Of a stretch of 64,000 nt of DNA, positions 11,333-59,756 are shown one piece after another (position 1 is the first letter of the stretch; each line of letters begins with the position of its first letter). This DNA is from Diphasiastrum complanatum (lineage: Eukaryota > Streptophyta > Lycopodiopsida > Lycopodiales > Lycopodiaceae). The notes under the pieces were generated by a model. The model saw only the letters and a list, made by a program, of their open reading frames with translations. It made no database searches and was not told the DNA's origin. The translations under genes and the position numbers were made by a program. The stretch is taken from the NCBI GenBank assembly GCA_029204225.1, contig CM055101.1, positions 62,748,171 to 62,812,170 of the forward strand. Reading direction: 5' to 3'.

Positions 11333-11480
11333 AGTGTCCGACTGAAGAATTTGCAATTGAGCATGGCCAGAATCCTACATTTCTTCTACAGGGACATTGA
11401 TGGCTACTCCTCTGCCGAGGCCATGAAAAGTTTTGATAGAATAGACAAGGATCCAGCAACCTAATTGGATGCAAAGAAAG
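11333..11480 (+). pseudogene. 3'-end fragment of a kaurene synthase-like gene
   Basis: About 140 bp are nearly identical to the end of the terpene synthase gene at 37685-37840. They cover the last part of the final exon (LSMARILHFFYRDIDGYSS), the stop region and about 25 bp of 3' UTR. Relative to that gene, 23 bp are missing just before the stop (after AAAAGTTTTG), which shifts the frame. Nothing of the other exons is found upstream, where copia A is inserted nearby. It is a gene fragment, not a working gene. Confidence 0.9.
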
Positions 11481-32261: not shown

Positions 32262-35200
32262 ATGAGATCGAGTGTTTTCGTTTCTACTCCCGCACGTAAG
32301 CGACGTAATGATCTTTGGCTTTAAAACACTCTTCCAGTAATTTGTAATATTAGTTTCATCTGAGAACGCATCGAATGCTCAAAGTTCAAACTTAAAACAT
32401 TAAACACTTTCGAAATAATTAGCTTCAACTCCTAATACGGTTATCATTTGCAGGTTGCCCAGTTTCATTCGAGCGAGTCGTGAAACTGTGGACCAAGAAG
32501 AGGACTGTTAGATGTGTAGCGCAAGGTATGCAATATCACCTGTTTGCTTTGCGCAATGCTATGACATCCATCACCACTCTAATAGAATGTATTTCATTGA
32601 AAGTGGTCTTTTCGGCTTGTCCGGAGTCCCTTGCTTCTTAATTCCATAGTACATTTAACTTATCACTGCTATTTGACCTCATGGTCAGTGGCATCCAGTG
32701 CTGATCGCAGCATGAACGCAACTGCAGCTTACGGTACAGAGCTGAGCAGGCCCCTGACCAATCAGCCTCTTTCTCCAGAATTCCAGGTCAAAGCCCTGTC
32801 GTAACTGGATTCAACATAGAAAGTTTCAGGTTTATGTTTCAGATAAACTAGTCTCGGTGATCCTAATATGCTCAGAATTGTACCACATTCTAGATACCGG
32901 ACTCAGATTCAGAGAAAATGAGAATCTGCATAAACAAAATCAGGGCAATGTTACGTTCGCTTGATGATGGCTCGATTAGTGTTTCTGCACTTGATATGGC
33001 ATGGATTGCCCGAGTGCCAGCTTTGAAAGGTCTCAGGTCGGGACCCGAATATCCAGCTTGTATTCAATGGATCCTCGAAAACCAGCTTGCTGATGGATCG
33101 TGGGATGATCAGAATTCCTATTTTGTGTATGAACGGGTCTGCTCAACTCTCGCTTGTGTGATAGCGTTAAAAACATGGGCACTAGGAGAGGAAAATGTAG
33201 AGAAAGGTGAGTATCAACTCAATCAACGTTTTAAAGTTAACCTCACTACTTTACAAAGATGTTTATTATGGACATGTTTTATCTTTACACACTGTTACCC
33301 TTTGCAGGTATGATGTTTATCGAGAGACATATTTCTAAGATGGAGATTGAGCAAGATTGTGACAGGACGCAGTTTCCTTTTGTGATTGTCTTCCCAGCCA
33401 TGTTAGATGAAGCACGAATGTTGGGATTAGACATTTGTTACCACGATGCACCTATGATGAAGCTTCTTAAATTAAAGAGAGAGGACCAGCTAAAAAGGTT
33501 TATACTCTTTGAGCAGATTATAATCCGAGACCTAGAATTTAAATATCGATATCGACAACCCTGATGTTGTATTGACTGTCGAACCAGAAGAGTGTATTCC
33601 GTTTTACTATATGTGCGCAACTCCAATTGAATGTTAGAATTTTTAAAACTCAAGAGGAATACACTCATTCGGTAAACTCAAATCTACTGTTGCTTGTCTG
33701 GAATCTTAGAAATTTTATTATATATGGCTCCGACACATTGTTTTCATCTTACGTGTAAGCCTGTGTTTACCGAACGTACTTAGTTTGACGTTATTTTGAT
33801 TTCTCTACAAGGATATCCCTGAATATGATCCTTAAGTATCCAATCACGATATTACATTGTACCCAAGGGCTTCGTCACGTTGTCGATTGGGAGCCATTAA
33901 TGACGCTGCAATCTGAAAATGGTTCGTTGCTTAACTCACCGGCCTTGACTGCATATGCGCTAATCCATACTGGGAACTCCAGCTGTTACCAATATCTACA
34001 GGCCATACTTGCAGACTTTGGAAAAGCAGGTACTACCGTATTACTGTTGAGAAATTGCATTTACCATAAATATTAACATGGAAAACATGTCAGATTAATG
34101 ACAATTCGCTACTCAGGACCTGAAGATTTTGATTTCACGATATTACGAAAATGAATGATACAAGGAAGCACCTTTGAAATCAAAACTTCAGGCATTCTCA
34201 AAATCGAATAAAGCTAACATCTGTGAATATTTGCTGCAGCGCCAATGCCGAAGGTCTACCCTTTGAATCTTTTTGAACGTCTTGCAATCATTTATGAGCT
34301 GCAATGCCTTGGCATTTCAAGATATTTTCAGCTGGATATTGTCAATACACTCGAGCATGCTTACAGGTAAATTCCTGCAATAGCATGAACTAAGTTTTCT
34401 AGTTAACTCTAGTTTTAGGTAGCTACGCTGAATTTCAGATATCCTGTATTTTGACGTACTCCTCATTTATGATTTTCGCATCTCAGGCTTTATCATTGAC
34501 AAGATTATGCATACACAGCTAGGCGACATCATGCATGTTCATTTTCTACTCTAATATAAAGTCAGCCAATTAATTCCAATGAACTGTATTCCTTTCTCTT
34601 CTGAGTCTTCTCCGATAACCTTAAAACTGTAATTAAAAGGTGTCTGTAAGCGTTTCCGTAAAAGCTTACAGAGAAAATACCGCCACGCACTTAGCACCTC
34701 AATACCATAGAGACATCGGAAAACACAGACCTCACAGTTGAGTCTGAAAGAGTGTCTAAAGTAGCTGCTCAAGATGTACATGATAGCGATATGAGGCTCA
34801 ATCTGCTGCAACGTTCTAAGGATGAAATATTGCAAGGTAAGATCCCTCAAGTGCTACTTTCGAACTAACTGTTAATGGACTCATCTGCTCAGAACTTATG
34901 CAAACAAAGCACAAAAATACGATGACATATAACCTCATTCAAACAACAAATTGAGAAAAATCACAATGAAGAAACGTAAGATTTCAATGCTGCAACGCGT
35001 GTCATGAAAAATTCCATGTCTGAATACTGTAAGATAGACACAATATTGCTATACAGTATAAGCCGTCTTCTGTAGTTCATATGGATTGCAGGATTCCCTT
35101 AAAAGTAACGTACTCCTTAATCTCTTCTCTATGCTAACGTTCCTCTGCTACTTTTATTCTACCAATCAGATATTGCATTCTGTAAGTAATATTTTGATTT

Positions 35201-37809
35201 CTAGACAGTGAACTAAATTTTTACAGTATTCTCCTATTGTCTAATCGAATCTTGTATTTCTTTTGTAATTAATTGATATATTGATCTAGCTCTAATGATA
35301 CATTGATTAGATAATGCTAAATTCAAATGCTAATCCATCACACAACTTCAAAATCCATGATGCTTGCTACGAGTTGCTGATACACTGATTAAATTATGCT
35401 AAATTCAAACGCTAATCCATCACACACCTTCGAAATTGATAATGGTTGCTACAAGTTGCCGCTTTGCGGCCTGAAAGCTGAGAAATAATTTGTTTTGTCG
35501 AAACTAGAGCAGTTTCTGGTTTGAAGGGAGACGAAGATGGCAGAATTGCAGATACAAGCTCAGACCTGTATAAAGCATCGGAATTATTATCTAAATCGGA
35601 AGGATATTTCCAAGGAGACGCTGGATACTTGCAGAGACTATTCCAGGATGAAATTGACGAGTTTCACCAAAAGCCAACTTCAAAAAAAGATGAAACAGAA
35701 AGCATGGAGGTAACGGGAGGGTTTAATACTATCTATTTACCTTTTGCAGTTACAACAATTTCTAATTGGAATTTAAAAAAAATTCCTGAACGACATGTTA
35801 TATATTGACTCGTCGCAGGTTCATATGAGAGTAACGAGCCGTTGGTATGCCACATTGCTGCGTTTAGGAACACGTCGGTTTATTCAGGACTACGAGAAAA
35901 ATAGTTGGATTGGTAGAGGCAGCAGGTTAGTGCTTCTGTAAGTGCGTAAATGGAATAAACGAAATATACCTGAATTATTGATCTCTTTCTGGAATGCTAA
36001 GTTAGCGTAGTCTTACTATCAACAGAAGTTCTGCCAATCTGCAAGTTTAATAAATTACCTAGAACGTACTGTACTGTTATCATCACTTTTGCGATAGTAT
36101 ATGATGATGTTGTGCATACTGCAGCCCTTTGAACTAATATATTGTCCGAATTTCACTCAAGATGACATATCTAATGATGTAGAACCAAGCAGCAGTACGT
36201 CAACAATGATGCTATGTTAGCTCTCGCAAAGATAGACTTCAACCTATGTCAGTCAATACATCAAACTGAACTGGATCAGGTGATGAGGTACGGTCGCTTA
36301 TAAATGTGATTAGACGTTACGGTTCTAGTAAACAAAAGTAGTAAATCGGGGATGCTTCCTTCATCTGACATTTATTAGTAATGAATGCAATGTTTAGTCA
36401 TCGTGCAAGCCTCGTGTAATGTTGACTTGTCAAATTTTCTGGTCCATAGGTGGAGCCGCGAGTGTCAAATCTCTCAATTGAAATTTCCTAGGCATAAAGT
36501 GACTGTCAACTATTTCTCAATCGCGGCTATGATGTTTGAGCCCGACAAGGCTCCTGTCAGACTTGTCTGGACACGTTGCAGTGCTCTAGCAACAGTTCTG
36601 GATGACTTTTTTGATTATGCTGGCTCGATATGCGAGCTAAGAGAGTTCTTGAAAGCCTTCAGGAGGTAAACCTTTGGAGTATTTTTCTGATTTTTATATA
36701 ACTTATGTGGCATCGAACAGAGGTCTAGTTAGTCATGTGCTGACAATTGAGTAGTCGTTCATTCTAATGAGCTTTGCAGCGAGCCAAGGAGAGTGCCTCG
36801 TTTGCAAATAGATTTGGTTTCATTTCTTTCGTCTAGATCTACACCAAAGCGAAAACTACAAACTCATATTCTGATCCTTAATATCCTGCGATGTTCAGAT
36901 GGGAACCGTCGTTAGGTGGATGCTTTTCAAAAGAGTGCCAGATACTATATGTGGCCTTACATAATACAATCAATGATATTGCGCGAGAGGGTTTTATAGC
37001 TCAAGATCGTGATGTTGGGATCTATCTCAGAACAATTGTATGTCATCCTTCAATCTATTGAGCATTTAAGCTATCGTCGAAACACGATTCATTCTTTGAT
37101 CGAACTTAATTCCATGTTGCAGAGGTATAAATTTCTCGTCTCCTGATATTCCTCTAAATGGTACTTCGTCTTCAGTGGGACAGGTGGCTTGCCTCATGCT
37201 TGACCGAAGCAGAATGGAAAGAAGGCGGTTTCGATCCTTCCATTGAAGACTACATGAAGGTTGCAACCTGTTCCATCGCGTTGGAGCCAATTGTACTTAG
37301 CTCCATGCTCTTTTTGGGGGAAAAGCTAACCGAAGATCTGTTAGACACCCAAGAGTTCTCTAATTTAATGAATCTCGTAAACATCATCGGCCGCCTTCTG
37401 AATGACATTCGAAGTTACAAGGTGACACAACCTAATCTACTCATATCTTAGAGACGTAGAAATCATGTCTGTCAAGTAGTACAATTTTATTGCTAAAATA
37501 AGCTGTATATCATGTTTTCAGAGGGAGCTCGGTCAGGGAAAATGGTGCAGCGTGACAATATACGTAAAAGAGCATCCCGAAGTGAGCCACGAAGAGGCAG
37601 TAAGGCAGATACAGGGGATGATAGAGGAGACGATGATGGAGCTGATCCGTGCAGTGCAGCAGCCTAGCATTGTTCCAAAGTGCTGCAAGAATCTGCAACT
37701 GAGCATGGCCAGAATCCTACATTTCTTCTACAGGGACATTGATGGCTACTCCTCTGCCGAGGCCATGAAAAGTTTTGTCGAGCAAATTTTATTCAACAAA
37801 ATAGAATAG
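32262..37809 (+). CDS. KSL: Kaurene synthase-like class I diterpene synthase
   Basis: Ionises a prenyl diphosphate, probably ent-copalyl diphosphate, in plastids. Exons inferred from splice sites and homology: 32262-32295, 32454-32525, 32689-32786, 32894-33206, 33308-33497, 33812-34029, 34240-34366, about 34713-34836, 35513-35709, 35819-35925, 36183-36287, 36450-36665, 36899-37037, 37176-37421, 37522-37809; about 820 residues. The basic Ser-rich start suggests a transit peptide. Domain marks in order: SVSALDMAWIA, LADGSW, LGISRYF, RWYATLLRL, DDFFD (exon 12), EPIVL and NDIRSYKRE across exons 14-15. The PI pair with Ile is linked in kaurene synthases to ent-kaurene formation. The DXDD position reads DVHD. 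All junctions keep frame except exon 7 to 8, so a lesion or missed small exon is possible. The upstream frame is open from 31974, allowing a longer N-terminus. Confidence 0.88.
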
Positions 37810-38330
37810 ACAAGGATCCAGCAACCTAATTGGATGCAAAAACCTTGAATGCCCTAAATTCTATTTCACTTGGGTGAAATTGAACGTTAGGACCCATTAT
37901 ATAGTGGTGGACTCCAAATTTTATAAGATATAATATAAAGAAATTTCAAATCCATTGACTGAATTTATGATATTTTGAGGTCCATGATTGAAGCTATAAA
38001 GGGGCTGCTAATTTGGCTTTTTGAGGCCTAATTGGTTTCCTTTTATCTCTCCTCTGCATTCCCATTTTTTTCACTGTGTTCATATCAATTTTTTCATATG
38101 AGCCATCCATGTCTACGCTGAAGTTCAGTCGAGCACCATGAGAAGTGCGGATGTCGCCTGGTATTTAATCTCGAACGTCCCATTTCTAATAGTGCGAACC
38201 TTCTTTCCTTGATTTTATTGGATTATTCTACTTTTGGGGTGATTCAGTCAAATGATCGATCTTTAATCTTCATCCACTTTATTATCCAGTTCTGCTTATT
38301 TGTGTCTCTACACAATCTGTAGAAATACTC
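37810..38330. other. 3' flank of terpene synthase, no further gene
   Basis: The first 25 bp (AGACAAGGATCCAGCAACCT onwards) are shared with the fragment at 11333-11480. Nothing else is recognised. Confidence 0.55.
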
Positions 38331-38559
38331 GGGAATCGCTCAACAGTGGCTCCGACATATCGATGACACCGACGTCGAAAGTCGAAGGAGTCGAACATGT
38401 CGATGAAAGACAATTATTGTTCTAGTTGATTTGAAGCTAAAGACTTGCCCTAACTGCTTTGCAAGTAAATTTCCGAGAAGTCCTAACTAGATGAATGCCA
38501 ACGCATTATGGCCAACTGGCTATTGCAATCTATGCCCTAATTAGCTGTCCTACTGGATA

Positions 38560-39031
38560 CACGTTAATTGCTTAGTATAAATAGCTAATCATCAAAGACT
38601 TTAGTCAACTCTCTAGCTTAGTTTCTATCTAAGCTTAGAGCTCAGAGTATTGCTATTCGCACTTATTGCTTATCCGCGGACTCTGCATCAAACAGAGTTT
38701 TCAGTTATTCAGAGATTGCTTAGAGTATGCGGTTCGTTCGGTATCATGTTAGAATGTATGCCTCTTTGTGATTATTTGTAACTGATAAATCTCTTTTTGC
38801 TTCATCTGATTTATTCAATACTTCATTGTTTGGCTACAAAATCACTTTAGTGCAGAGGATTTCAACGTTGGTTGCTAAAAGATTGAACGAGACTTCTGTC
38901 ATTATGCTTTGTTCAATATTGATGGCCGTAGTCATGCATTAGGAAAGAAGACTAAGTCCCACTGCACTCGATAAGTCACTTATAGTCTTCAACTTGTCGA
39001 ACTAACTCACTTCATCTCCTTGTTTCCAACA
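38560..39031 (+). repeat. 5' LTR (right part) of a further copia element
   Basis: The sequence ends TTTCCAACA directly before a primer site and holds a TATA-like AGTATAAATAG near 38575. The left end of the LTR could not be fixed because no second copy was found. Confidence 0.62.
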
Positions 39032-39043
39032 TGATATCAGAGC
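39032..39043 (+). other. Primer binding site, copia type
   Basis: TGATATCAGAGC, one base different from the usual TGGTATCAGAGC. Confidence 0.72.
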
Positions 39044-39238
39044 AATATATTATATCAGAACTAGACTATTACTTGATATCTTTCACAATATCAAAGCGAT
39101 ATCATTAGATACTTTTCATAGTATCATATTCTTCAATTTGTGGTATCAAATTTCAGTATCAGATAATTGATTTCCAATTGTAACGCAACACAACATCATT
39201 CTTAATGTCATCGATTTTTTGACAAACTCAAGTTCCAA

Positions 39239-39520
39239 ATGGATTCTCAAAGTAAAGCCGGTCTTATCATAGACAAGCTGAATGGATCCAATTACTATTT
39301 GTAAAAATTTAAGATGAAGACCTTGCTAATCACCAACAAGTGGAATGTTGGCACAGGTATCAAATTGAAGCTTGAAGACGAAAAGCCAACTCAAAGTGAA
39401 AGTTGAAGGATGGTAAAGCTTTTGTGCTTATTATCCTCAATGTATGAAACACTCAGATTGGCCACATATCTGAAGCTCAAACTTCGAAAGAAGTATGGGG
39501 CATCTTGAATTCTTCATAAT
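39239..39520 (+). pseudogene. Copia gag N-terminal fragment
   Basis: The frame MDSQSKAGLIIDKLNGSNYY is followed by a stop where Trp is expected, then KFKMKTLLIT. Further on, in another frame, HISEAQTSKEVWGILNSS matches the copia gag pattern. The gag ends abruptly near 39515, where the unusual cassette begins. The matching RNase H end of a copia element resumes at about 46050. Confidence 0.8.
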
Positions 39521-39646
39521 ACAAAATCGACGGATTATAAAAAATTTCCAAAAGCATGCAAATTTATACAAGCCAGTAGGCTATAGACACACAATAAAAT
39601 TTTGTATATTAAATAAAAATATTTACAAAGTACAATTCAGCAGTAT

Positions 39647-41410
39647 CTAATCTGCTTTCGATATTTTTTCCAATGAAAGTTGCAACTTAGAATCATGCAA
39701 CAATTTTTTTCTTTCGTATGGATCCAATAGCTCATAGTTTTCATGCTTACTAAGATCAACATAAGCAGCATACACTGCAAAATGAGATGATCTGAGCATG
39801 GAATTCACTAGTCCAAATCCTAAAATTTTAACCGCAATAGTTTTCTTTAGAAAAATTATTTTATGCACCTTATTAAAATTATGTCCTCCAAGAAAATGAG
39901 ACAATGCCTTGATTGCCATAATCATAGTTTCACCATGTTGATGAAACTTTGAATGGGCAACACTTATCTCATTATTCTTGAAGGACTTTAGATAGTGCCC
40001 AAGTGCATGATCTCTTGAAAATTCTCCCGCAGAAGATCTTTGCCCTCCTCGACGAATTGCGAAATCATCAAGGAAAATTGTTTCCTGAAATGATAAAAAA
40101 CAAAGTAAGCTCCAGTATATAATCTGACATAAAAAATCTACTAGTACTTGATAAGAGACAAAAACTTACGCATTCGGCTTTGTCTTCTCTGATTACTGTC
40201 TCACTTTCAATATTATGTCCACCTTTGATGTCAATATTGTTGGTGAATAGACAGTTGGCTGTGGTAATCCAAGTTGACTTTGAATTCTAAGAAACTCCTC
40301 CTCAGAAGGCAGATCATCTTCTTTGTTGCACATTTCCTCCACAACCATTTTCAAGCAATCTTTCCCTGAATAAAATTTATCATTATGTACATTGTCAACA
40401 CCAGCATCGAAATCAATAATATCCAAAAATTCATCAAGCTTTTTGCTCAAAATGCAAAGAGTCTCAGCTTCAGTGAAGTAAAAAAGATCCGATATTGTCA
40501 AAAAGGAACTATTATCTATATTATAAATAGGCAAAGTGATCAAACATTTATCAGAAAGAGAAAGGTTGGTGGGTGTTCTAGGGTCTATAAAGGTAGACCC
40601 GAGCAGGATCAAAATCAGAACAATCATCTAAATTAACACTCGTATCAATAAAAAAAGGTTTCTATATCTACAATCTTTGACTTTTAAGACTTTGTACCAC
40701 TAGAAGAAGCTACTTCAGACGTGGAGGGCACATAGTTCAAATCGTCAGAAATATTTAACAAAAGAAAAAAAACAAAAGCAGACTAAAAATCAACAAATCT
40801 ACATTTTTTTATTATGAATTGGGCACTCATCTACAGACTTGAAATCATTATGTAACCTGGTAAACATTCTGTCAAGCTTAGCTTTATAGATATGCTTGTC
40901 GAGTGCCACCAAGTCCTGATAATGAATCATGTCTTTATTCTGAGACCTGAATAACGGAATACTGAGCAGGGACTTAAATCTGAGATATATCTCAGAAAAT
41001 GCCTCCACACCAGGGCCCTCAGTTATAGAAGTCAGAATAAAAAGAAAAGGAGAAAAAAGAGATTTGAAATAGTCCAACCTATCAGTAATACCAAATTCAT
41101 TAAAAAAAAAAAACCAAACTGGATTCAAAATTAGACATTTTAAACAAAAATAACAGAACTGAAGCTCCAAATATCGCTCTCAGGCGCAAACACCAGGTTA
41201 GACAAGCAAGTCTAGGCAACATGCACTCAAAAGAGATATTGGAAGCTGGAGTATTGGATCCGAGCGCAAGAACAACGAGCAGGAAAGAAAAGGGATACGC
41301 GCTTGAATGTGATACCGGAGGATGCAGTATCGGATCCAGGTGCATAATAGTCAACAAGACGTAATGAGAGCAAGTGGCGTGCTTGAAATCGATATTCGGC
41401 AAAGCAATCG
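39647..41410 (-). pseudogene. Gene X, unrecognised multi-exon gene
   Basis: The gene reads leftwards. A first part (about 41150-40799) has a start like MSNFESSLVFFF next to a T homopolymer that shifts frame, followed by GITDRLDYFKSLFSPFLFIL and FKSVDECPIHNKK. A second part (40627-40172) is rich in acidic residues (LDIIDFDAGVDNVHNDKFY, LPSEEEFLRIQ), changes frame once and ends GHNIESETVIREDKAEC before a donor-like GTAAGT. A third exon (about 40086-39647) starts ETIFLDDFAIRRGGQRSSAG and ends LSLEKISKAD before a stop. Exon 2 to 3 joins in frame. I recognise no family. The intron pattern and sustained amphipathic coding suggest a real, now damaged gene. Confidence 0.5.
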
Positions 41411-42262
41411 TAAATTTGCGTGAAAATCCGAGCCGAGAAATACCTATTTATATAAAAATTTTCGCACATGTGGAGAAGTGGCGAAGGAACACGTGTCAAC
41501 ATGCGATTGGCCCAAATAAATGCACCGTACTTTGAATGATTGAACTGACATCTGTCACGTGCGAGAATGACACGCGTCATCAAGGGATTCACGCACGTGT
41601 CACAGCCCACATGTCCTTATAATTTGGTCATCATTGTCAGTACGGACATTCCACGTGGACTAATCATCAGACGACACATGTCTCAAAAATTCATTAAAAG
41701 AAAAAATGCAAACTGGATTCAAAATTAGACATTTTAAACAAAGATATCGCTCTCAAGCGCAAACCCCTGGTCTGACAAGCACGTCCAATCAACGAGCGCT
41801 CGAGAAAGATTTTTGAAGTTGGACTATCGGATGCGAGCGCAAGAACAACGACCAGAAAAGAAAAGGTATGCGAGACATGCTTGAATGCGATACCATACGA
41901 TGCAATATCGGATCCAGGCACATAATAGCCAACAAGTTGTAATGAGAGCAAGCGGCGCGCTTGAAATCAATATCTAGCAAAGCAATCGTGAATTTGCGTG
42001 AGAATCCGTGCCCAAAAAGATCTATTTATAGAAATTATTTCGCACGTGGAAAAGTGGCAAAGGAACATGTGTCAACTTTTGATTGGCAAAATAAATGCGC
42101 CGTACCTAAAAGGATAGATCTGACATATGTCACGTGTGAGAATGACACGCGTCGATCAGGGATTCACGCACGTGTCTCAGCCCACATGGCCTCATAATTG
42201 GTATATCATAATCAGTATGGACATTCCACATGGTCTAATCATTTGACGACACGTGTCTCGAC
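41095..42262. repeat. Tandem 594-bp duplication spanning the gene X promoter
   Basis: GGATTCAAAATTAGACATTT occurs at 41121 and 41715, and the match continues through both copies to ACACATGTCTC / ACACGTGTCTC. Each copy holds the start region of gene X, a minus-strand TATA box (reverse of 41448-41457 and of 42023-42031) and several ACGTG words. Confidence 0.9.
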
Positions 42263-42300
42263 CGTCTTTTCACACATGCAAAAATTTCGTATATATAAGC
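41448..42300. promoter_or_regulatory. Divergent promoter region rich in ACGTG
   Basis: A TATATAAAT-type box faces left near 41450, a second faces left near 42025, and GTATATATAAGCC faces right near 42290, towards the histone gene. Between them are many ACGTG or ACGCGT words (for example AACACGTGTCAA, GTCACGTGCGAG, GCACGTGTCAC, CCACGTGGAC). The right-facing promoter (GACACGTGTCTC...CACACATGCAAAAATTTCG) is an inverted, diverged copy of the left-facing one (GACACGTGTTCC...CACATGTGCGAAAATTTTT). ACGTG is the core of plant G-box/ABRE elements. Confidence 0.6.
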
Positions 42301-42608
42301 CCTCAAAATTTTCATTTTTTTTTGCAAAATTCTCGCCTTTAGCTTCCGATATCGCTCTCAAGTGCGCTCTTTCATCCTTCAGGCTTCCGCTCTCTCACAG
42401 TGAGCTTGAGTACGATACCGCCTGTTGTGCAATATCGCTTTCGAGCACACACCTCTTTTCTTCATATAATCTCTGTAGATCTTGCGCTCAAAACCGATAT
42501 TCAGTGTTGGTATCGATCTCAAGCTCCCTTTCGTCGTAAATTTTTTGTTTTGATTCACTTTTGTTTATTTCAAACTTCTTTTTGTTAATCATTCTTCTTC
42601 TGAGAATC

Positions 42609-43010
42609 ATGGCCAGGACTAAATCCACCGCCCGTGCCATCACCACTATACAACCATCCCATTCCCGCATTCCCCCTGGTACTAGCCGTAGGCATGGCAG
42701 GAAGCAGGTATGGCTTACGAAGATCAGAAAACTCCAGAGATCAACTGAATTGTTGATCCCTAGAGCTCCTTTCGACCGATCTGTTCGAAATGTCACTCTG
42801 TCACTTGGGCTTGATGTTCGTTTTGCCGTGACAACCATGCAGGCTTTGCAAGGTGCTGTAGAAGATTTTTTGTCCCAATTTTTTTAGGATACTTGTCTTT
42901 TGACAGTGCATGGTAAGCGTGTCACCATCATGCCAAAAGATTTCGTCATTCTCAAAAGGCTTCGGGACAGATATTCTGGTCTGCATGTAGATAATGCCAG
43001 GTCATCCTGA
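42609..43010 (+). pseudogene. Divergent histone H3-like domain
   Basis: The frame starts MARTKSTARA, keeping H3 residues R2, T3, K4 and R8 but with Ala at the K9 position, and has a tail about 13 residues shorter than normal H3. The fold is clear: IRKLQRSTELLIPRAPF, then RFAVTTMQALQGAVEDFL, then HGKRVTIMPKDFVILKRL. LLIP.APF and KDF recall CENH3, while TIMPKD and the ungapped loop 1 are canonical H3. A TAG at 42885-42887 replaces the Glu of the usual FED, and TGA comes at 43008-43010. With no spacer, the ULP1 frame continues one base out of phase. It is either a damaged histone gene or the N-terminal domain of a broken fusion. Confidence 0.88.
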
Positions 43011-44268
43011 GCTCTGAGTCAGATGCTAGAGAATCTGACTCAGATAAAAAATCTTCACCCAGTCTTCCTCCTGTTATTCGTCCAGCTCCTCAGCAGGTTT
43101 CATCACCAAAATTGTTGATTACCCAAGAGGAGCTAGACAAAATAATAGAGAAATCTGTAAATATTGTTTCCACTTCTCTTTCTGCCCCTCCTGTACATAA
43201 TCTTTTTGTGAGAATTCCATATGATCCAACCCAAGTTTTTTTTTATTCTGACCATTATAATCAATACGAGGCCTACCTAGCTAACAAAATTGATCTTCTC
43301 GGCAACTTTTTTGAATTTTTTCTTCCAGATACACGTAGAAGCTTTAGATTAGGTCCTAAATTTTGTGCCGAGATTAAATATAAGACCTCAAAAATTTCAG
43401 ATGCAATAGTAGAGGCCGGTGTTTCATTTTTGCAAAATAGTATTAGTTTCAATTTTCATGGTACAGTTTTTGTAGTTAGTCCATTTTTCATGGGAGCGGT
43501 AAAGGCGAAAGAAGCCAATTTTGAGAAGACTGTCTATTTTATCGAGTGCAGTCCTATGGTGAAATTCTATTTGATTCCATATGAAAATAAGTAAGGATTG
43601 CTCTTTTGTTTTTGTTGCTTAATTCTGGATTGTTGCATGCCTCATTGCGTTAATAAGAACGGAATTTTTTCATAAATATGAATGTATCGATATTTGTATC
43701 TTGGTTGTTGCAGTCGACATTGGAGCCCAAACATTCTTTTTGTAAAGATAAATAAGGAGGGAGTATCAAATTTTCTATGTGTAAAATTAAACTCAGCTGC
43801 AAATACACATAGAGAATTTGATTCTCTACTTCATGATGTCGTTCGGGAAATACCGACAACGACAACTTCAATTGGAGATATAACCATCAAATCTCTGAAG
43901 GTATATTCAATTTATCTCTGATATGCATGTATTCCTTTTCTTAAATCAAATGTATCGTCATAGCATAAATAAAATTTCTATCATAATATTACTAATTTTG
44001 GTTCTCTATATGCAATGTGTATAGCAGAATGATGCTTTTAGTTGTGCATGGTTCGTCCTGTACAATACGAAGCTATTTTTTGAATGGTATAATCTACAAA
44101 TGGATGTAGATATTGAAAAGGTAATATTCTATTCATTTGTAGTTCATTTCATTCTGATTCATATTTTATTACTATCATTGTATGTAATTTGCTGATTCTC
44201 ATGTTTTGTGATGACAGTTCACTCTTGAGCCGTATACTCCTGATGATGTATATAGATTTCGGCAATAG
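43011..44268 (+). pseudogene. ULP1/SENP-type (C48) cysteine protease, probably fused to H3
   Basis: Proteases of this family cleave SUMO or related tags from proteins. Exons: up to 43590, 43714-43900, 44025-44120, 44218-44268, all joined in frame by GT-AG. After an acidic Ser-rich linker (SESDARESDSDKKSS) and LITQEELDKIIEKS, the C-terminal core shows FYLIPYENN then RHWSPN (catalytic His-Trp), a Leu-rich strand FLCVKLNS where the catalytic Asp would be expected but Asn stands, and QNDAFSCAWFVLY, with Gln six residues before Cys exactly as in SENPs. The open frame has no ATG before these domains, which favours an upstream exon or fusion with the histone. TAG at 44266-44268 may be an added stop. 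Confidence 0.72.
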
Positions 44269-44820
44269 TTGATCAGAACCTTTGTCTAGTACAGTGTAAG
44301 CATTGCACCTGCAATCGAGGGCCCTCAAAAGGAATCTGCTCCTGTCTTAACAGCCTTTCAGGTTGTTCAAGATGCAAATCTTATTCTATATGATCAAAAA
44401 GGAATAAAGTCCTTCCTAATACAGAGGAAGGCAAATTTGTAGCAGATATTCCTCTTGCCTTAAAAGGCATTGAGGCCCTTCCCGAAACAGAGGAGGAGGA
44501 GATTATAGGAGTTGTTGCTTTATCAGTTCCTAATACTGATATATAAAATATAGAAAAATTGATTGAATAGAGATCTATTTGTAAATAGAAAGACATAAAA
44601 AAAAAAGATATAATCATTTTACTTGTAAACAACCCGTTTATGGGTTTTTTTTTATTAATATCACAATAGATTCTTACAATCAGCTTGTGTCCATAGTCTA
44701 ATAATGGAATGCAATTTTTCTATAATGATAAAAAGACATGATGATTGGCATGTATTTGTTGATAGTGAATCTCAATGTTCTTCCATAAGTTGGATTGTTT
44801 CGCCAATATCTCTGCATTTG
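44269..44820. other. Tail of protease gene and intergenic sequence
   Basis: Possible read-through coding continues after the TAG (SIAPAIEGPQKESAPVLTAF near 44300) but meets further stops. The remainder to 44820 is AT-rich spacer between convergent genes. Confidence 0.4.
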
Positions 44821-44829
44821 ATCTCGAGC

Positions 44830-45891
44830 TCATGTCTTTTACGTACCTGCATAAAACTAATACAAAGTTAGTTAGAATTAGTACAGAAATTGTATTAGAA
44901 AGTTTTGATTGAAACTATTCATAAAAGATTGAGTGTTTATAGTTACTTACGAGTTTACCATTGAAAATGAATCTGAAGTCCGAAAGTACATCATCTTGTA
45001 GGAGCAATAGTTTTCGCCGGATGTAGTTTAGAATCCAATCTTCTTCCACCTCAACACATGTCAAAACGACATCATTGTATATAATTTTAATATTTTCTCG
45101 TTTTGAATGTTCACTGGCTTCCAAGTCTTGATCGAGTGGCACCCATTTACCTTTATTTTTTTTTTCATCTTTGATAATGGAAGCATAAGCTTAACATTTG
45201 TTTTTCAATTTGATAACAGAAGTACATGGAAGACATTTTAATTTTGCATTCTATTTCTCCATCTGATCACTTTCAAAACTAGGTAATGGAATTGGTACTA
45301 TTTGTCCAAAATTTCCTTTTGTATCAAGAATGTACATTGATTTATAAAAAAAAATTCCACTATCAGCTAGATCTTTTGCAGTTCTACCTCGATATTGCAG
45401 CTGTTCAATATCAGTGTGAATAACATCTAACACACCTGCTAAAGATCCACTTGGCTCCCATTCATTTATGTTGGATGGATATAAGTTTGCAAGAGAAAAA
45501 TGATCAGATTGGCAAGTTTACTATTAGATATTTATGAATGATAAAAATCAAAGTATCAAAAATATCAATACTCATAGTTGTTTTTTTTGTGATCCTGACG
45601 GTTGAATCCTTGCACATTTATCTCTGAATGCATATATGCATGTTGGACTAGAATTTCAGAAATAGATTTTCCTCCTGATGATGTTCTGAAATCCAAAATT
45701 CTGGCCTTCCAATAAGATCGAAATGATAGTTTTGACCTTTTCCTTTTTTGAAATGCTCCTCTTGATAATGGATGCATAAAAACCCAAGAGTTTTTTGAAT
45801 ATTTTCTTGGCACCCATAATCCATTATCGTCTGTCTCATTGAATAGAAGCACAGAGTCGATTGAGGAGCACGGCTTCCTTGATGGCGCCAT
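44830..45891 (-). pseudogene. Gene Y, unrecognised multi-exon gene
   Basis: The gene reads leftwards. Exon-like block 45891-45571 starts MAPSRKPCSSIDSVLLFNET and contains NGLWVPRKYSKNSWVFMHPL and a basic stretch. Block about 45500-45251 has NLYPSNINEWEPSGSLAGVL and RTAKDLADSGIFFYKSMYIL. Block about 45180-44950 has KGKWVPLDQDLEASEHSKRE and ILNYIRRKLLLLQDDVLSDF. A last short block near 44850 reads VRKRHELEIKCRDIGE. The blocks are separated by AT-rich, intron-like gaps. I recognise no family. It converges on the ULP1 gene. Confidence 0.42.
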
Positions 45892-46005
45892 CCGTAATTT
45901 GCATGCAAAAATCTAAAACAATGAACTATGAATCTGAAAATTTGCGTAGACAAAAAGCCATGAATCTGAAAAAAAGTGCTAGCAAAAATTTGAAACACTG
46001 ATCTA

Positions 46006-46042
46006 TTTGGCGCCACAAATTAACTCTGATCTATTTGGCGCC
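46006..46042 (-). promoter_or_regulatory. Two E2F-type sites, 28 bp apart
   Basis: TTTGGCGCC occurs at 46006-46014 and 46034-46042 within a 28-bp tandem duplication (CTGATCTATTTGGCGCCAC). This matches the plant E2F consensus TTTSSCGC, typical of S-phase genes. It lies about 115 bp upstream of gene Y. Confidence 0.5.
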
Positions 46043-46049
46043 ACAAAAG

Positions 46050-46420
46050 ACCCTATGTTTCATTCATGAACGAAGCACATTGCAGTCAAGTACTACTTGA
46101 TCAGAGACATGATTGAGAAAGACAAGTTGAGAACCATGTTCATTATGACCAAACAGATGGTTGCTGATATATTCACTAAACCCTTAGACAAGGGATTGTT
46201 TGAAAGGCAAAGAGCCAGCCTAGAAAATGAAGAGATGAACCACACGAGCACCGTAGAATCCCTTGCTATGGTCTATCTCCGATTGCTTGCCAAAGAATCT
46301 TCACAATCGCAAGACACCGTAGACAAACAGTTGCAAAAACATCGGATCTTTACAACCCAAGTACAGGGAAGTGATGGTGCGGTGGTTCGCTCACACCAAC
46401 AAGATGAATACTATAAATAA
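46050..46420 (+). pseudogene. Copia RNase H C-terminal fragment
   Basis: DPMFHS, a stop, then TKHIAVKYYLIRDMIEKD and MVADIFTKPLDKGLFERQRA form the normal end of copia pol. It begins exactly where the unusual cassette stops. It could be the far half of the copia element whose gag lies at 39239-39520, but no matching 3' LTR was found. Confidence 0.83.
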
Positions 46421-46501: not shown

Positions 46502-46819
46502 GAGTCTTAGACTACCATAAAGAGGGATTGCAAAAACAATTAGGCGGTTGAGATAACCATGCAATTTTTTGATACTGATATTATGATAAAGAAATGTAAA
46601 AACAATTAGGTGTCAAAGATAACCATACATTTCTTCGTTTATGATACTTGCGGAAGAAGAGTGAGAGTTAATTAAGATTCAATGGAATGTAGGAGTTAGA
46701 ACAATAACGAATCTGTATATTAATGTTGTAATAACAATGATCAAATCACAATACAATTGCACTGATAAGCATGTGATCCTACTTGCACAAACAAAATAGT
46801 TGCCAGTTATGAATATTTA

Positions 46820-46897
<78 letters not shown>

Positions 46898-46986
46898 TCT
46901 AACTCTGTGGAGTCAAATACTATGAAGACCAATTTTAGTCGTAAGATCTCTCTTGGAGAATCTTCATGCATCATCTTTAATCTACA
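46502..46986. repeat. Direct repeat R, left copy
   Basis: About 485 bp are alignable throughout to 59230-59756 in the same orientation. It includes ACCATAAA, AATACAATTGCACT, a CT run (about 46820-46845) and a TA run (46846-46894). The nature is uncertain: LTR-like, but without clean TG/CA ends. Confidence 0.82.
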
Positions 46987-47477
46987 ACACTCATTTACTT
47001 ATATAGCAGCTGAATGATTTTGTGTTAAGCTAACTTTACAATTAAAAGATCGTTAACAGATATTGAATTGGTCATTTAGATCAGTTATTAATGGAGCATG
47101 AAAATGTAACAATCTGTACTTGAAATCCTATGTAAATCTGCAGAGTGTCGTGTTCTTCACATTCTTCCAAAAAAATGTCGCATTTCTGAAAGTGCCCAAA
47201 ATGGTCCGAAATCTTGAGCAAACACTTTGTCGTATTTTTCACAAAATCCTTTTGTACTCAGAATGGCCCGAAAGTGAAGTAGAAGACTTTGTCGGGTTTT
47301 TTGTCTTTTTCGGTTGTTGAAGTTTGCGAGTAAAAATGCACACTGTTGCGATAAACAACTCAAAAATGCAGACTGTAAAAAATAGTTTATTTTCAGTAGA
47401 CTACTTTGAGAGAGTGATTTACATAACAGAAAAGGTGGGCTGTTGGGATGAGTAGGAGAAAGATTAAACTCCAACAT
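46987..47477 (-). repeat. Probable 3' LTR of copia D
   Basis: The sequence ends CTCCAACA, and the adjoining interior reads AAGCTTAAGGGGAAA on the coding strand, a good polypurine tract. The left boundary and the partner LTR were not identified. Confidence 0.5.
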
Positions 47478-53634: not shown

Positions 53635-54188
53635 TGTTTTATGGTGACCACAATGGGATTTAGATCCACGAAAGCCAGATACTCTAGTGGTATCCTAGTT
53701 CATACCGCCATAGAGGATTTAGAAGGTTTAGAAGTGTTATCAATGCTCCTAATGTGAAAGAAATTGGACAAATACGAAAGGGAAACATACATTTTGATGA
53801 AAAAGAAGAAGAAGAAAAAAAAAATTGGATATTCCACATGGAATTGACCTCGTGAAATCCTTTATATGTGTTTTGATTTTGAATGGACAATCATTATTTA
53901 ATGATTGTATAGATGAAAAATGAATGATTGTAACTTTTGATCTTGATGGTATTGTGTGATAAAAATTGTTGTTTGGACTTAGTGATATTTGTGAGATGTG
54001 TGAACAAGATTGAATGTTTTCATGATTGAGTAGTACAATAGTTTCAAGATTTGTAGAAGAAGTAAGGTATAGTGTTGGACAGAGAGTATAATTGAAAATA
54101 AAAAATCATTTATACGATCATTTGACAACAATACATTAGAACATATAAAAATAAATAAATAAATAGAACCAAAAAAAAAAAAAAAACA

Positions 54189-55238
54189 ATGTCAATGGAT
54201 GAAGAAAGTGCCAGTCTACCTAGTTTTAATGGAAATGAAGATGAAGATGCAGATCTACATATTCAAAGATTCATGAATGTGTGTAGACAAAATTATGAAG
54301 AAGAAGATGATGATATGTTTAGATTATTTCTAGTAACATTGGATAATCTTGCTCTTGAATGGTATTTAGTATTGAATCAAAAGAAAATTTGCAATTGGTC
54401 AAAACTTAAAACAAGCTTCTTGGATAGATTTAGAAGATGGAATTACTATTCTGATATTATTAAATTACTAAGTGAAATTAAACCAAAACAAAATGAACCT
54501 ATCAAAAGCTTTGTTGATAGAATCAATTGTTTGGCTAAAAGATTAAGTGAAAGACCAGGAGAAGAAATTTTCTTATCTTGGTTTATATCAGGTTTGCCTA
54601 ATGACATGGCATATGATATTCTCTCAAAAGTTCCTAAGACTTTTGAGGAAGCTATCTCAAGGGCAGTTGCTTTAGAACGTGCTAATAAAATGATGACAGA
54701 AATAGAAGAATTTGATAAGAAGAGTTGGATAGATAGATCCTTGGATGAATTTGATGTAGGAATCACTTCCTACTATGCTAGAGTATCATCTATTCCTAAA
54801 ATTCTTAAAAAAAATGAATCTTGTTATTTTGATGATCCTATTCAAACAAATCAACTTTTTAAAATTAAGGAAAATATTATGGTGCAAGAAGGATGTAGTA
54901 AAAATGTTAAGTATGGCTATAAGATTAATCAATCAAATAAAATCATTGTTGTCATTGAAGAAAACAATTGTTGTGAAGATACTCAAGATGTGGTGCATTC
55001 CATTGATGTCTACTTTGAACCGATGGAGTCTTTATATAATGATAATGAAAAATTGGAAAATATATATGATGCTACAATTGATAAATATGCTATTGAGGAA
55101 GTAGAACAAGAAGGTCAATCAAATTTGGTTGATTCTAACTTGTTGCAAAGTCAATGTCTTTTGAAGGAAGAAATGCTACCAAATGACATATGGATATCAC
55201 AACCTGAAAGTCAAATATTACCATTATTAGGTGAATGA
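54189..55238 (+). CDS. Gag-like protein of element E
   Basis: An open frame of 349 codons begins MSMDEESASLPSFNGNEDED and shows the retrotransposon gag layout of Ty3 elements: F.GNEDEDADLHIQRFMNVC, LEWYLVLNQKKICNWSKLKT, FLDRFRRWNY, then SFVDRINCLAKRL and WFISGLPNDMAYDIL. After residue 200 it becomes acidic and less conserved. There is no zinc knuckle and no pol in frame. It is unusual here for being uninterrupted while the surrounding elements are broken, so it may still make protein. Confidence 0.8.
   Translation: MSMDEESASLPSFNGNEDEDADLHIQRFMNVCRQNYEEEDDDMFRLFLVTLDNLALEWYLVLNQKKICNWSKLKTSFLDRFRRWNYYSDIIKLLSEIKPKQNEPIKSFVDRINCLAKRLSERPGEEIFLSWFISGLPNDMAYDILSKVPKTFEEAISRAVALERANKMMTEIEEFDKKSWIDRSLDEFDVGITSYYARVSSIPKILKKNESCYFDDPIQTNQLFKIKENIMVQEGCSKNVKYGYKINQSNKIIVVIEENNCCEDTQDVVHSIDVYFEPMESLYNDNEKLENIYDATIDKYAIEEVEQEGQSNLVDSNLLQSQCLLKEEMLPNDIWISQPESQILPLLGE

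Positions 55239-59229: not shown

Positions 59230-59756
<527 letters not shown>

What the first reader, a model, noticed from the sequence alone, without database searches (positions are those of the whole stretch)
42609..44268. Histone H3 domain apparently fused to a ULP1-type SUMO protease
A clear H3 fold (MARTK start, STELLI, KRVTIMPKD) is followed with no spacer by a frame encoding an acidic linker and a C48 protease with His-Trp and Q-x5-C motifs. The protease frame has no ATG of its own, and its four exons splice in frame. A one-base shift near 43000 plus TAG at 42885 and TGA at 43008 would break an original fusion. I know of no described H3-ULP1 protein. Such a protein could act at nucleosomes on SUMO-marked chromatin, for example to protect or target an element. 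That role is inference.
Basis: partly seen in the sequence, partly recalled or inferred. Interest (0 to 1): 0.9.

Follow-up and report, generated by a model that had tools for sequence, protein, structure and literature searches.

The report
Decayed plant histone H3–SUMO-protease fusion gene
A broken plant gene, probably from a mobile element, appears to have encoded one protein made of a DNA-packaging histone joined to a domain resembling enzymes that remove SUMO tags, which could have helped the element resist silencing, but only this one decayed copy could be examined.

Summary
The observation mostly holds. A divergent but clear histone H3 starts at 42609 (Pfam Histone 9.6e-25 read through one stop). 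A one-base frame change within a 13-base overlap leads into an open frame of 309 codons in four exons with GT-AG introns. The C48 (ULP1-like) call is weak: 14.0 and 16.3 bits against a cut-off of 20.7, though 0 of 9 reversed or shuffled controls hit C48. His-Trp and Gln-x5-Cys are present; the catalytic Asp position reads Asn by eye. Coding-like sequence continues, in broken frames, to about 44546. The first ATG after a TATA-like box is the histone's; the protease frame has none before residue 166.

The locus may be part of an old mobile element: a duplicated region shared with a divergent decayed gene, and a second decayed neighbour, both without an accepted Pfam family. No transposase, terminal repeat or second copy was found, but only pieces were tested and the source genome could not be searched, so an intact fusion is unproven. 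The H3 tail keeps K4 but lacks K9, K27 and other standard lysines, which would suit a counter-silencing role like that of VANDAL/KIU proteins (inference).

The parts
41093..42259 (.). two tandem copies (41093-41684, 41687-42259) of a region of about 575-590 bp between two divergent genes; each copy holds the first codons of gene A (MSNFESSL) on the minus strand, followed in both by a stop after a run of T
   Evidence: the repeat finder; 80% identity; alignment and peptide
42290..42299 (+). TATA-box-like TATATATAAG (by eye), about 310 bp upstream of the H3 ATG; no other ATG between 42320 and 42611
   Evidence: sequence; ATG scan
42609..43007 (+). histone H3-like coding part, one in-frame stop (TAG 42885), TGA at 43008
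   Evidence: Pfam PF00125 9.6e-25; translation
42995..43590 (+). acidic Ser/Pro-rich linker and first half of the C48-like part, frame shifted by one base from the H3 frame
   Evidence: ORF; joining
43591..43713 (+). intron 1 (GT-AG, 123 nt)
43714..43900 (+). exon with the His-Trp motif
   Evidence: Peptidase_C48 match
43901..44024 (+). intron 2 (GT-AG, 124 nt)
44025..44120 (+). exon with QNDAFSC (Gln-x5-Cys)
44121..44217 (+). intron 3 (GT-AG, 97 nt)
44269..44546 (+). further coding-like sequence in the same frame (two stops counting the TAG at 44266), then a shifted frame ending ...EALPETEEEEIIGVVALSVPNTDI and a stop: probable original C-terminal tail (inference)
   Evidence: translations; ORFs
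39650..41138 (-). gene A, divergent decayed gene (read by eye): pieces 40799-41138, 40193-40627 and 39650-40084 with a GT-AG intron 40085-40169; only sub-cut-off Pfam hits
   Evidence: Pfam
44772..45891 (-). gene B, convergent decayed gene (read by eye); its last two exons resemble a ubiquitin-like domain by eye only
   Evidence: no Pfam family for the pieces, no convincing PDB match; fold uninformative

Best explanation
The stretch 42609-44546 is a decayed gene that once encoded one protein of roughly 530 residues: a divergent histone H3 (tail plus histone fold), an acidic linker, a C48 (ULP1/SENP)-like domain and an acidic tail. It is one of at least three genes of an old, probably mobile, plant element, and shares a duplicated upstream region with a divergent neighbour. 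Most likely mechanism (inferred): the H3 part enters nucleosomes, perhaps over the element itself. With K4 kept and K9/K27 gone it could not carry the silencing methyl marks. The protease-like part would remove or bind SUMO on silencing factors there. The protein would thus be a counter-silencing factor. Shown: the histone domain, the open spliced second frame, the lack of a separate start, the breaks. Inferred: the fusion in the ancestor, the mobile nature, the function. The confidence given is for the anatomy (one fused gene in a multi-gene, probably mobile, locus); the function alone I put at about 0.2.
For: H3 domain 9.6e-25 with 42 of 91 fold positions identical to canonical H3. At that divergence a neutral copy should hold many stops (argument, not computed); one stop is seen in the 133 H3 codons and none in the 309 codons of the spliced second frame. 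The only ATG in 42320-42611 is the H3 ATG; the second frame has no ATG before residue 166. The frames overlap by 13 bases. C48 16.3 bits over the core, 0 of 9 controls. The tail has no lysine between K4 and aligned position 31; K9->A, K27->R, K36 in a gap (placement within the tail is uncertain). An upstream region shared with gene A and clustering of ATATCG there (8 found, 0.6 expected, motif chosen after looking) recall mobile elements with ULP1 genes (passages of PMC13317346, and PMC2528002).
Against: Only one broken copy. No relative of the protease part: 566 candidates, none at E <= 1. No H3-C48 protein seen among the 120 listed of 1203 hits at fusion length; 1083 hits were not shown. C48 is below Pfam's cut-off and the Asp position reads Asn. 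Some in-frame splices would remove both stops together with the histone fold, e.g. donor 42708 to acceptor 43096. The H3 frame ends about where an H3 normally ends. Gene A's start is followed by a stop in both repeat copies.
Confidence: 0.45

Rival explanations
1. Two genes or gene pieces that lie next to each other: an H3-like gene ending at the stop near 43008 and a separate C48-like gene whose first exon is lost or was not recognised.
For: The H3 frame ends at 43008, about where histone H3 should end (after RDRYSG); H3 proteins are normally stand-alone (recalled); no fusion seen among the 120 proteins listed.
Against: The second frame has no ATG for 165 codons and opens inside the H3 frame; no other ATG lies in 42320-42611. 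No promoter search of the stretch between was made.
Confidence: 0.3
2. The gene encodes a protease with a short H3-like tail: an intron from 42708 removes the histone fold and both stops, leaving MARTK...GRKQ joined to the linker; or splicing is alternative.
For: Donor CAG|GTATGG matches 7 of 9 consensus bases, acceptor ...CTCAGCAG, 389 nt, open frame through to the protease exons.
Against: The fold inside that intron is conserved as protein (Pfam 87.6 bits), which an intron would not be. The trial found 218 joins ending in the protease frame, and all 25 printed have no stop, so a stop-free join by itself means little.
Confidence: 0.1
3. A chance pile-up of a captured H3 fragment and unrelated coding debris in repeat-rich DNA; the protease call is wrong.
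For: C48 score below cut-off, no PDB or database relatives, Asn at the Asp position by eye.
Against: Correct order of the C48 match, in-frame GT-AG introns, long open frame (2 of 1000 random sequences reach 199 codons), 0 of 9 controls hit C48.
Confidence: 0.15

Closest known systems
KAONASHI (KIU) / VANDAL non-TIR Mutator-like elements with ULP1 genes
   Same: Plant element with several genes, a ULP1-like gene, no long terminal inverted repeats found, a short motif clustered in non-coding DNA; VANC-type proteins of VANDAL elements lift methylation from related copies (review PMC13317346, passages seen)
   Different: No mudrA-type transposase found in the pieces tested; the protease-like part is next to a histone H3; no sequence relationship was tested or shown
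CACTA and MULE families of grapevine with ULP1 regions
   Same: ULP1-like domain carried by plant DNA transposons (PMC2528002, passages seen)
   Different: The word histone does not occur in that text; no CACTA ends found here
hAT elements of Pseudocercospora fijiensis carrying histone H3
   Same: A histone H3 sequence carried by a mobile element (PMC6710886, abstract and one section seen)
   Different: Fungal; a captured housekeeping H3 inactivated by RIP; no protease mentioned in what I saw; here H3 is strongly diverged and abuts a C48-like frame
Ginger1 DNA transposons
   Same: Ulp1 protease domain as a C-terminal part of an element protein (PMC2836005, passages seen)
   Different: Joined to a DDE transposase; listed families are from animals; the word histone does not occur in that text

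Membership tests
Histone H3 (core histone, PF00125) | Score above Pfam gathering cut-off over the fold | tested here: met
   54.9 bits before the stop and 87.6 read through, cut-off 26.4
Histone H3 | Canonical tail with the standard modifiable lysines | tested here: not met
   13-residue gap in the tail, K9, K14, K18, K23, K27 replaced, K36 in the gap; K4 kept
CENH3 / CENP-A | Longer loop 1 and divergent N-tail (features recalled) | tested here: inconclusive
   Loop 1 has canonical H3 length in the alignment; yet before the stop the best PDB scores are CENP-A (44.6 bits, against 40.9 for H3.Y and 40.4 for the next H3)
Peptidase C48 (ULP1/SENP, PF02902) | Score above Pfam cut-off | tested here: not met
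   14.0 and 16.3 bits, cut-off 20.7
Peptidase C48 | Catalytic His, Asp, Gln, Cys in order (recalled) | tested here: inconclusive
   HW and QNDAFSC present; Asp position reads Asn by eye alignment (sequence)
KIU/VANDAL non-TIR MULE | mudrA-type transposase gene in the element | tested here: inconclusive
KIU/VANDAL non-TIR MULE | Short motif clustered in non-coding DNA, no long terminal inverted repeats | tested here: inconclusive
   ATATCG 8 against 0.6 expected in 41093-42608, partly from the duplication; of 43 inverted pairs in 37800-46100 the 25 longest shown are at most 28 nt
KIU/VANDAL non-TIR MULE | Multiple copies in the genome | not tested
   Own genome search did not complete (15 calls); no second copy within the window

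The most novel reading that the evidence does not exclude
A plant mobile element encodes its own non-silenceable histone H3 fused to a SUMO protease, which replaces or invades nucleosomes over the element and strips SUMO-dependent silencing there: chromatin made by the element itself.
Probability: 0.15. Interest if true: 0.93.

Novelty: new variant of a known kind. Interest (0 to 1): 0.62.

Why it matters
ULP1-like domains recur in plant transposons, and a recent review says the precise function of the domain there is unknown (passage in PMC13317346). A version joined to a histone that lacks K9 and K27 would point directly at chromatin and give a testable idea of what these domains do. It would also be an unusual case of a mobile element supplying its own nucleosome part.

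Tried and rejected
Terminal inverted repeats or CACTA ends around the locus: none convincing; the nine-base motif count printed no rows. CENH3 as origin: not decided. Ubiquitin-like fold for gene B: suggested by eye and by a strand-strand-helix-strand-strand pattern in a poor single-sequence model (pLDDT 45.9); Foldseek gave 0 matches at E <= 0.001, so it is only noted. The H3 model without an alignment had pLDDT 39.1 and was not used. Sub-cut-off Pfam hits passed over: CENP-T_C 24.4 bits (cut-off 28.1) and CENP-S on the H3 part, RsmF_methylt_CI on its C-terminal piece, SAM_EPH and DUF19 on gene A pieces. NCBIfam gave one irrelevant hit at 0.028. H3 search of viral contigs: 32 stretches, 1 confirmed by tblastn (L001, 34% identity); its open frames look phage-like by eye and the match lies opposite a minus-strand frame, so rejected. 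Protease search of viral contigs: 64 stretches, none confirmed. H3 protein search at fusion length: 1203 hits among 1494 candidates, 120 listed; no PF02902 in the Pfam column of those rows; phmmer of the protease part hit 0 of 120; the 40 domain rows printed all come from proteins with two or three H3 domains. Literature: (histone H3 + transposable element + Ulp1 + MULE) 0 papers; others (15 of 286 listed; 1 paper; 15 of 28 listed) showed no H3-Ulp1 element in the listings; eight later paper searches failed, so absence from print is not established.

Full report
What is there. At 42609 a reading frame starts MARTKSTAR and continues through STELLI and, past one stop, KRVTIMPKD. Pfam Histone scores 54.9 bits up to the in-frame stop at 42885 and 87.6 bits (9.6e-25) if the stop is read as X. 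In a pairwise alignment 42 of 91 fold positions equal canonical H3. Of the residues I looked at as DNA contacts or four-helix-bundle positions (lists recalled), R69, R72, R83, F84, K115, R116, D106, H113, D123 and R129 are kept; R49, R63, K64, Q85, S86, C110, L126, A127 and I130 are not. The tail keeps K4, but K9 is Ala, K14, K18, K23 and K27 are replaced, and 13 residues including K36 fall in a gap; the placement within the tail is uncertain.

The second part. A frame shifted by one base is open from 42995 and overlaps the H3 frame by 13 bases. It runs for 596 bases and continues through three introns with GT-AG borders (123, 124, 97 nt) to a stop at 44266-44268. It has no Met for 165 codons. 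Over its last part it matches Peptidase_C48 in the right order (profile 84-196 of 217), at 14.0 bits for 309 residues and 16.3 bits for the 139-residue core, below the cut-off of 20.7. Of 9 reversed or shuffled controls none hit C48; 3 hit other families at E 0.15-0.18 and 6 hit nothing. Since C48 was named before the test, the match to that one family is less likely by chance than its library-wide E-value suggests; this is my reading. The Asp position appears to be Asn (eye alignment), so catalysis is uncertain. The PDB search returned three chains at E 0.5-2, none a protease.

The gene may be longer than reported. After 44268 the same frame goes on through a further stop, and then a shifted frame rich in Glu ends near 44546. 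I read this as the decayed C-terminal tail, so the ancestor would have had about 530 residues (inference).

One gene or two? For one: TATATATAAG at 42290 (by eye), no ATG other than the H3 start in 42320-42611, no own start for the second frame, abutting frames, few breaks in a protein that has diverged strongly. Against: no intact copy, and an H3 would normally end about where the first frame ends. Trial splicing found 218 joins of the H3 frame with the protease frame; all 25 printed have no stop, and the best-scoring one (42708 to 43096) would remove the histone fold. I hold one fused gene as most likely, about 0.55-0.6 taken alone; with the probably mobile multi-gene locus included, 0.45; the counter-silencing function alone about 0.2.

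Surroundings. Upstream lie two copies of a 575-590 bp region, 80% identical. Each holds the first codons (MSNFESSL) of gene A, followed in both by a stop after a run of T. Gene A runs the other way to 39650 and is broken (read by eye). Gene A and the H3 gene therefore appear to share an upstream region. In 41093-42608 ATATCG (either strand) occurs 8 times against 0.6 expected from the rest of the window; the motif was picked after looking, and part of the count comes from the duplication. Downstream, gene B runs towards the H3 gene from 45891 to 44772 (read by eye). The group sits between a terpene synthase gene (one piece PF19086 7.3e-20) and what reads as the end of a copia element (46070-46420, by eye). 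I infer a plant; no call names the organism.

Relatives. Protein search with the protease part: 566 candidates, none at E <= 1. With the H3 part at fusion length: 1203 hits among 1494 candidates, 120 listed; the protease part matched 0 of these 120, and the 40 domain rows printed come from proteins with two or three H3 domains. Viral contigs gave one match for H3, judged false, and none for the protease. The source genome could not be searched, and two further protein queries were not sent.

Comparison with the known. I saw passages of PMC13317346, PMC2528002 and PMC2836005, and the abstract and one section of PMC6710886. According to these, plant MULE and CACTA elements carry ULP1 domains, VANDAL elements with such VANC genes induce hypomethylation of related elements, Ginger1 transposases carry Ulp1, and a fungal hAT element captured H3. 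None of the passages I saw describes H3 joined to ULP1. The finding would work most like a KIU/VANC-type anti-silencing gene, but membership is not shown: no transposase was found in the pieces tested and no sequence relationship was tested.

Verdict. A real and unusual decayed gene; the histone is certain, the protease fold probable but below the family cut-off, the fusion likely but unproven, the function a hypothesis.

Noticed in passing
44772-45891, minus strand: Decayed gene B; its last exons (IKIIYNDVVLTCVEVEED...FRFIFNGKL then VRKRHELEIKCRDIGETIQLMEEH) look ubiquitin-like by eye, which would be striking beside a ULP1-like gene; tests were uninformative.
   Followed up: partly
39650-41138, minus strand: Decayed gene A without an accepted Pfam family, sharing the duplicated upstream region with the H3 gene.
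   Followed up: partly
32894-37809, plus strand: Terpene synthase gene: piece 37158-37448 passes the Pfam cut-offs, piece 37480-37806 matches the same families below cut-off, piece 32894-33310 matched nothing and looks like a diterpene synthase N-terminal part by eye only.
   Followed up: partly
11345-11475: Stretch 84% identical to 37687-37840, which overlaps the 3' end of the terpene synthase gene: perhaps a stray copy of that gene end.
   Followed up: no
46502-46988 and 59230-59756: Two copies of an LTR-like sequence, 76% identical, the first next to what reads as the end of a copia element.
   Followed up: no
54159-55238, plus strand: Open frame of 359 aa with a retrotransposon gag match (Pfam 3.3e-09).
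   Followed up: no
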